DNA of 64,000 nt, from assembly GCF_026240635.1 (NCBI RefSeq), contig NZ_CP110848.1, positions 1,986,501 through 2,050,500 of the forward strand, read 5' to 3'. Shown here piece after piece: positions 6,183-53,990 of this stretch; the stretch's first letter is position 1, and each line of letters starts with the position of its first letter. Both the position numbers and the translations under genes were made by a program. The notes under the pieces were generated by a model that was not told the origin of the DNA, searched no databases, and saw only the letters and a program-made list of their open reading frames with translations. Origin of the DNA: Trichothermofontia sichuanensis B231 (GTDB lineage: Bacteria; Cyanobacteriota; Cyanobacteriia; B231).

Positions 6183-6294
6183 GGTTCTTCTGGGATTTTG
6201 GGGTAAGCAGTATCAGCAGCTACAAATAAACGATCGCAAATGCTGAGTTTATGGTGGGGGCGCGTAGCGCCCCCACCATAAACTCAGAAGAGCC
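6183..6294 (+). mobile_element. 112-bp MITE, copy A, with 8-bp target duplication
   Basis: Terminal inverted repeats GGTTCTTCTG / CAGAAGAGCC (one mismatch) are bounded by a perfect 8-bp direct repeat GTTCGTTT (6175-6182 and 6295-6302). The right part is a 41-bp palindrome (6245-6285) with 19-bp arms and a GTA loop. No coding capacity. Two further 112-bp copies lie at 21667 and 53879. GG-starting ends and 8-bp duplications fit mobilisation by an ISL3-type transposase, which is inference. The element supplies the last three codons and the stop of kinase 2. Confidence 0.85.
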
Positions 6295-21545: not shown

Positions 21546-21713
21546 ATGGATCACTCTAAAACAATACATCTATCTAACGAAATTGACCTGAGTCAGGAAG
21601 CTTGGGCAGGTATTCATAAAATTGCTGATCGGCTCAATCTTTCAGTTGTTGAACTCCTGGAAAATCGGTTCTTCTGGGATTTTGGGGTAAGCAGTATCAG
21701 CAGCTACAAATAA
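21546..21713 (+). pseudogene. Small gene truncated by MITE copy B
   Basis: A 55-codon frame starting MDHSKTIHLSNEIDLSQEAW and continuing IADRLNLSVVELLEN, then running into the MITE, which encodes the last 15 residues and the stop. The native part looks like a small DNA-binding or antitoxin-type protein in which a helix is followed by VVELLE, but I cannot name the family. Beyond the MITE (21779-22027) fragments of open frame remain without a recognisable product, so the original 3' end is lost or scrambled. Confidence 0.5.
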
Positions 21714-21778
21714 ACGATCGCAAATGCTGAGTTTATGGTGGGGGCGCTACGCGCCCCCACCATAAACTCAGAAGAGCC
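21667..21778 (+). mobile_element. 112-bp MITE, copy B (loop inverted, no target duplication)
   Basis: Exactly 112 bp with ends GGTTCTTCTG / CAGAAGAGCC, nearly identical to copy A through the left 60 bases. The palindrome has the same 19-bp arms but loop TAC instead of GTA, i.e. the hairpin is inverted. The flanks GGAAAATC and GTCAATTT do not match, so the 8-bp duplication is lost or never existed. Confidence 0.85.
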
Positions 21779-53878: not shown

Positions 53879-53990
53879 GGCTCTCCTGAGTTTATGGTGG
53901 GGGCGCTACGCGCCCCCACCATAAACTCAACGTTTCCGATCGTTTATTTGTAGTTGCTGATACTGTTTACCCCAAAATCCCAGAAGAGCC
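53879..53990 (-). mobile_element. 112-bp MITE, copy C, with 8-bp target duplication
   Basis: Reverse orientation to copies A and B, exactly 112 bp, bounded by GGGATACG (53871-53878 and 53991-53998). One end has changed from GGCTCTTCTG to GGCTCTCCTG. The palindrome has the same 19-bp arms, and the loop reads GTA in element orientation, as in copy A. It lies in the 600-base spacer between cofH and sppA. Confidence 0.85.

What the first reader, a model, noticed from the sequence alone, without database searches (positions are those of the whole stretch)
21727..21769. Hairpin loop inverted in MITE copy B relative to A and C
In element orientation the palindrome loop is GTA in copies A and C but TAC in copy B, while the 60 left bases of B keep the same orientation as A. 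That is what inversion of the hairpin by its 19-bp arms would give. It hints at cruciform or hairpin processing, or a flip-flop during transposition or replication. Copy B is also the one without a target duplication.
Basis: partly seen in the sequence, partly recalled or inferred. Interest (0 to 1): 0.55.

Follow-up and report, generated by a model that had tools for sequence, protein, structure and literature searches.

The report
Hairpin loops flipping in bacterial repeats
A short mobile repeat in a cyanobacterium carries a perfect DNA hairpin whose three-base loop is found facing either way among otherwise identical copies, which is what a known copying error (template switching at inverted repeats) would leave, and unrelated repeats in the same genome show it too.

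Summary
Copies A and C have loop GTA and copy B has TAC in element orientation; B alone of the three lacks a target duplication. The element is a 112-bp ISL3-like MITE with 8-bp target duplications. The genome holds 147 hairpin cores; I read 123 of these plus 3 weaker ones. Of 113 perfect cores, 70 have GTA, 40 TAC, 2 TAT and 1 ATA: states related by reverse complement, not random loops. Both states occur inside haplotypes identical elsewhere (27 GTA and 18 TAC; 23 and 6; 1 and 1) and in older subfamilies, so the flip recurred or was shuffled between copies. Loop state does not follow strand, chromosome half or target duplication. Other hairpin repeats of the same genome, with different flanks and loops, also show exact loop inversion, and a homologous MITE in a distant cyanobacterium shows reverse-complement loop pairs. 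This points to a general process at hairpins, best explained by polymerase template switching between the arms, known from yeast genes, rRNA genes and plastid 'small inversions'. Not testable here: both states at one locus, since no near relative was found. Verdict: real and recurrent, but a new instance of a known process.

The parts
21667..21778 (+). MITE copy B, 112 bp, subfamily 1, imperfect terminal repeats GGTTCTTCTG / CAGAAGAGCC, no target duplication
21727..21747 (+). left arm of perfect hairpin, 21 bp
21748..21750 (+). loop TAC, inverted state
21751..21771 (+). right arm of perfect hairpin, 21 bp; overlaps the right terminal repeat
6183..6294 (+). MITE copy A, subfamily 1, loop GTA at 6264-6266, 8-bp duplication GTTCGTTT
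53879..53990 (-). MITE copy C, subfamily 2, loop GTA in element orientation, 8-bp duplication CGTATCCC

Best explanation
The hairpin is a fixed part of a 112-bp non-autonomous element with ISL3-type ends. Its loop inverts because the two perfect arms let a DNA polymerase switch template: the nascent strand leaves one arm, anneals to the complementary copy of that arm on the other strand, copies the loop from the wrong strand, and returns within the second arm. The result is an exactly reverse-complemented loop with unchanged perfect arms. The same switching can copy one arm from the other and so keep the arms paired. Shown here: loop states related by reverse complement, recurrence across haplotypes and subfamilies, and the same pattern in other hairpin repeats of the genome. 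Inferred: the polymerase mechanism, the number and timing of events, and that flips happen at fixed loci rather than only when copies are made.
For: Exact-pattern census of left part plus loop (up to 2 mismatches): 39 GTA and 22 TAC places (the first count includes some copies of other haplotypes). Subfamily 1 by haplotype: 29 GTA/21 TAC with 5 substitutions in 50 copies; identical haplotype 27/18. Subfamily 2: 26/8 with 6 substitutions in 34 copies; identical 23/6. A third identical haplotype has 1/1, and parsimony over the 33 haplotypes needs 11 further changes. Unrelated hairpin repeats: 68 copies of family F2/F4 have AGAGC 35/GCTCT 8, ACAGG 3/CCTGT 3, AGAAC 3/GTTCT 1, ACTCT 2/AGAGT 1, AGATC 1/GATCT 1, against 3 of 1564 and 0 of 952 exact inversions in control 5-base windows beside the hairpin; F3 has AGAGC 15/GCTCT 2 of 20. 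Second genome G007: TGA 8, TCA 3, TCC 2, GGA 1, TTA 1 of 15 oriented copies (L120 repeats L234). Paired arm changes at several positions. No dependence on strand or chromosome half. Published: spacer inversion by template switching at perfect inverted repeats in yeast, arms over 9 bp (PMC8604942, passages read); loop-only inversions in rRNA genes, bacteria included (PMC8794818, passages); repeated flip-flop of hairpin loops in plastid genomes (PMC6824564, passages).
Against: No locus was seen in both states; no near relative was found, so flips at fixed loci are not shown. Copies are so alike that one old flip per subfamily followed by spread of two source copies could give the within-subfamily mixture; subfamily-2 TAC copies are clustered (5 of 8 lie at 0.08-0.79 Mb, where no subfamily-2 GTA copy lies; neighbour concordance P=0.04), which suggests inheritance of the state. 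Chimeric elements show that copies recombine, so loop states could be exchanged by conversion. In G007, TGA and TCA differ by one base, so that pair alone is weak. Most arm differences counted are one-sided (54 one-sided, 20 paired, 10 changed on both sides but unpaired, summed over 21 arm haplotypes; many of these come from broken copies).
Confidence: 0.72

Rival explanations
1. Two source lineages: the loop flipped once or a few times long ago in each subfamily, and both versions then spread by transposition with the state inherited. The initial flip still needs a mechanism.
For: Identical haplotypes with both states are also what two source copies would give; subfamily-2 TAC copies are clustered along the chromosome (P=0.04).
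Against: No base outside the loop separates GTA from TAC copies in either subfamily. Both states recur in subfamilies 1 to 5 and in a minor haplotype. Subfamily 1 shows no clustering (P=0.74). Other repeats show the same.
Confidence: 0.16
2. Ectopic gene conversion: a copy lying in the opposite orientation pairs through the palindrome and donates its loop inverted.
For: Subfamily chimeras show exchange between copies; the palindrome allows pairing in both orientations.
Against: Inversion of single-copy hairpins is reported in yeast genes (PMC8604942) and plastids (PMC6824564), so no second copy is needed. Subfamily 2's outer T/G mismatch stays put in both loop states (29 GTA and 9 TAC), so any donated tract must be shorter than the hairpin.
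Confidence: 0.07
3. Transposition-coupled flip: the transposase or a hairpin intermediate inverts the hairpin during excision or insertion.
For: The hairpin arm overlaps the right terminal repeat; the loop differs among inserted copies.
Against: Loop state is independent of target duplication; repeats without these ends flip too; the only ISL3 transposase match is a broken relic.
Confidence: 0.03
4. Assembly or library artefact at perfect palindromes in repeats.
For: Palindromes within near-identical repeats are hard to place; raw reads were not available.
Against: The loop lies 28 bp from the right end of the element, so ordinary reads reach unique flank; the same pattern appears in two separate genomes and in hairpins with arms of about 10 bp.
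Confidence: 0.02

Closest known systems
Spacer inversion by template switching between inverted-repeat arms (yeast genes, PMC8604942)
   Same: Perfect arms over 9 bp, short spacer exactly reverse-complemented, arms unchanged, recurrent and reversible
   Different: There inferred on strain trees at single loci; here inferred between dispersed copies of repeats in one bacterial genome
Plastid 'small inversions' in hairpin loops (e.g. PMC6824564)
   Same: Loop orientation flips many times while the stem stays
   Different: Single-copy stems compared between species; here a mobile element with many copies
Loop-only inversions in rRNA genes, bacteria included (PMC8794818)
   Same: Loop inverted without a footprint in the stem
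   Different: Function-bound RNA stems, typically four-base loops; here dispersed repeats
MITEs of the ISL3 insertion-sequence family
   Same: No gene, ends like an ISL3 relic in the same genome (27 of 32 bases), 8-bp duplication
   Different: Carries a 45-bp hairpin near one end; no intact mobilising transposase was found

Membership tests
Template-switch spacer inversion | Loop replaced by its exact reverse complement, no intermediates | tested here: met
   70 GTA, 40 TAC, 2 TAT, 1 ATA of 113 perfect cores
Template-switch spacer inversion | Flanking perfect arms of about 10 bp or more, short spacer | tested here: met
   21-bp arms, 3-base loop; mostly 10-bp arms, 5-base loop in the other repeats
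Template-switch spacer inversion | Homogenisation of arms (paired changes) | tested here: inconclusive
   20 paired changes, but 54 one-sided and 10 unpaired, over 21 arm haplotypes
Template-switch spacer inversion | State change at one locus between near relatives | not testable with these tools
   No near relative:
ISL3-type MITE | Ends homologous to an ISL3 insertion sequence | tested here: met
   27 of 32 bases shared with the left end of a relic with Zn_ribbon_ISL3, HTH_Tnp_ISL3 and DDE_Tnp_ISL3
ISL3-type MITE | 8-bp target duplication (recalled as typical of ISL3) | tested here: met
   82 exact of 114 elements with both ends found
ISL3-type MITE | Moved by an ISL3 transposase | not testable with these tools
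   One PF01610 match in the genome, a fragment
Site-specific invertible switch | Recombinase acting at the inverted repeats | not tested
   No recombinase search was made; the pattern recurs at hairpins of different sequence

The most novel reading that the evidence does not exclude
Hairpin loops in this genome flip at individual loci so fast, relative to base substitution, that each copy acts as a reversible two-state mark. If every TAC copy of subfamily 1 were its own event, a flip would be about 460 times as frequent as a change at one base (21 of 50 copies against 5 changes in 50 x 109 bases); with a single event, about 22 times.
Probability: 0.2. Interest if true: 0.55.

Novelty: new member of a known kind. 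Interest (0 to 1): 0.36.

Why it matters
Multi-copy elements turn a hard-to-see mutation into a census: dozens of near-identical copies, in which the loop is the chief difference within a subfamily, could give a rate for template switching in bacteria. It also warns that loop bases of repeats should not be read as several substitutions in phylogenies, and it removes the need for a special transposition mechanism.

Tried and rejected
Same-locus comparison: no near relative among 39 genomes of 'relatives' (only distant G007 matched besides the own genome), in 388 genomes of the class (only G000 and G007), or in genome contigs with the neighbouring glucokinase-like protein (two loci at 59% identity; records of the window's own genome may be left out there). 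Plasmids and viral contigs gave no match.

Duplicated insertions with shared flanks were sought as a stand-in for one locus in two states; none had both flanks shared in the same order.

Replication direction: GC skew from the part read gave no clear origin or terminus, so only chromosome halves were tested. Known RNA: only sub-threshold microRNA and ftsZ-DE matches to the hairpin. Folding energies are equal in the DNA model for both loop states. C-GTA-G is a GNA triloop, recalled as unusually stable; no effect of it was seen.

Rows dropped: of 134 hits with up to 3 mismatches, 8 were dropped as not this element, leaving 126. Two could not be oriented (1750787, 3949127) and one (1335428) was re-oriented from TAC to GTA after inspection; the counts use the earlier orientation (1335428 is not in the tree). 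24 of the genome's 147 cores with up to 2 mismatches lie in parts not read. In G007, 16 of the 18 places were read, 15 of them oriented.

Full report
Observation. The window holds three copies of a 112-bp element. Copies A (6183-6294) and B (21667-21778) match one consensus exactly outside the three loop bases; A has GTA, B has TAC. Copy C (53879-53990, on the minus strand) belongs to a second subfamily and has GTA. A and C carry 8-bp target duplications, B does not.

The element. The genome (4,436,989 bp, one contig; window at 1986501-2050500) holds 147 hairpin cores with up to 2 mismatches, against 3 for the reversed control pattern. I read 1,384,829 bases of it, covering 123 of the 147 and 3 weaker copies, 126 elements in all. 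Of 114 with both ends found, 82 have an exact 8-bp duplication and most are 112 bp long. The ends, GGYTCTTCTG and CAGRAGAGCC, resemble the left end of a broken insertion-sequence relic at about 3638.8-3639.6 kb (27 of 32 bases; sequence). That relic has Zn_ribbon_ISL3, HTH_Tnp_ISL3 and DDE_Tnp_ISL3 domains in two frames and is the only PF01610 match in the genome. I therefore call the element an ISL3-type MITE. The organism is taken to be a cyanobacterium: the glucokinase-like neighbour's matches are in Chlorogloea and Aliterella, and GCGATCGC occurs 63 times in the window; that this octamer marks cyanobacteria is recalled.

Loop census. In element orientation, the 113 perfect cores have GTA 70, TAC 40, TAT 2 and ATA 1; with the imperfect ones, 124 oriented elements give GTA 75, TAC 43, TAT 2, ATA 2, GGA 1 and TAG 1. 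TAT is the reverse complement of ATA, so the rarer loop is seen both ways too. Subfamily 1 (haplotype 1111111) has 29 GTA and 21 TAC with 5 other substitutions among 50 copies; subfamily 2 has 26 and 8 with 6 substitutions among 34 copies. No position outside the loop separates the two states.

Recurrence. With the loop removed, 107 elements with GTA or TAC fall into 33 haplotypes. Three of these hold both states (27/18, 23/6, 1/1), and parsimony needs 11 changes between haplotypes. The tree is weak and copies recombine (chimeras at 1867083, 2096504, 3262882, 3755311, 3954175), so these numbers are a guide. Older subfamilies also hold both states: S3 (TAC at 547013, 1413329, 1425545, 3541210, 4311603; GTA at 1627259 and 1335428), S4 (GTA 3713683, TAC 3812917) and S5 (GTA 4145219, TAC 1423088) (the sorting into S3 to S5 is by eye).

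No correlate. Loop state is independent of element strand (P=1.0 in both subfamilies), chromosome half of the plus-strand loop (P=1.0 and 0.74), and target duplication (P=0.14 and 1.0). Subfamily-2 TAC copies cluster: 5 of 8 lie at 0.08-0.79 Mb, where no subfamily-2 GTA copy lies, neighbour concordance P=0.04, while subfamily 1 shows none, P=0.74. This is a sign that state is inherited on transposition, and it argues against flips being very fast.

Not special to this element. A screen of hairpins in the part read found another abundant arm ending CTCTCCC/GGGAGAG. Oriented by their flanks, its families also show inverted loops. For 68 F2/F4 copies with a left anchor: AGAGC 35 and GCTCT 8, ACAGG 3 and CCTGT 3, AGAAC 3 and GTTCT 1, ACTCT 2 and AGAGT 1, AGATC 1 and GATCT 1; the other loops there have no reverse-complement partner. 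Exact inversion of 5-base windows beside the hairpin was seen in 3 of 1564 and 0 of 952 copy-windows. F3 has AGAGC 15, GCTCT 2, AGAAC 2 and ACTCT 1 of 20; 9 further copies of this arm could not be oriented. In the distant genome G007, the homologous MITE has TGA 8, TCA 3, TCC 2, GGA 1 and TTA 1 among 15 oriented copies (counting L120 and L234 once; L232 not oriented). Of 388 class genomes only G000 and G007 hold the hairpin.

Mechanism. Template switching between inverted-repeat arms predicts exact loop inversion with intact arms, recurrence, and arm homogenisation. The first two are met. For the third, paired arm changes exist (for example positions 4, 6, 9, 10, 11, 14, 15, 17 of the arm), but unpaired ones are more numerous, many in broken copies, so this is inconclusive. 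Subfamily-2 arms keep their outer T/G mismatch in the same sense in both loop states (29 GTA, 9 TAC), so the inverted tract lies within the hairpin. Published parallels, read as passages, are PMC8604942, PMC8794818 and PMC6824564. My searches for MITE, cyanobacterial or bacterial reports of loop inversion (listings and abstract starts only, apart from the papers named) showed no report on MITEs, but the library is partial and this is no proof of absence.

Verdict. A real and recurrent inversion, ordinary in kind: a known mutational process seen unusually clearly because the element is so abundant and uniform. The missing target duplication of copy B is a coincidence as far as these data go. 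What remains open is whether loops flip in place and how fast.

Noticed in passing
window 21546-21713: Copy B lies at the end of a small open reading frame that starts at 21546; the element supplies its last codons and stop, so a gene may be truncated.
   Followed up: no
L094:980-1836 (G000 about 3638.8-3639.6 kb): Broken ISL3 transposase relic in two frames, itself ended by a MITE copy; the only PF01610 match in the genome.
   Followed up: partly
G000 1867083, 2096504, 3262882, 3755311, 3954175: Elements with mixed subfamily-1 and subfamily-2 markers, a sign of recombination or conversion between copies.
   Followed up: partly
G000 0.08-0.79 Mb: All five subfamily-2 copies here have TAC, though GTA dominates subfamily 2 elsewhere.
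   Followed up: partly
G000, e.g. 2152438, 3425148, 3608942: Abundant second hairpin repeat (CTCTCCC arms, 5-base loop) in several families with different flanks; also shows loop inversion.
   Followed up: partly
G007 (L096-L124, L226-L240): Homologous MITE in a distant genome of the same class with TGA, TCA, TCC, GGA and TTA loops.
   Followed up: partly
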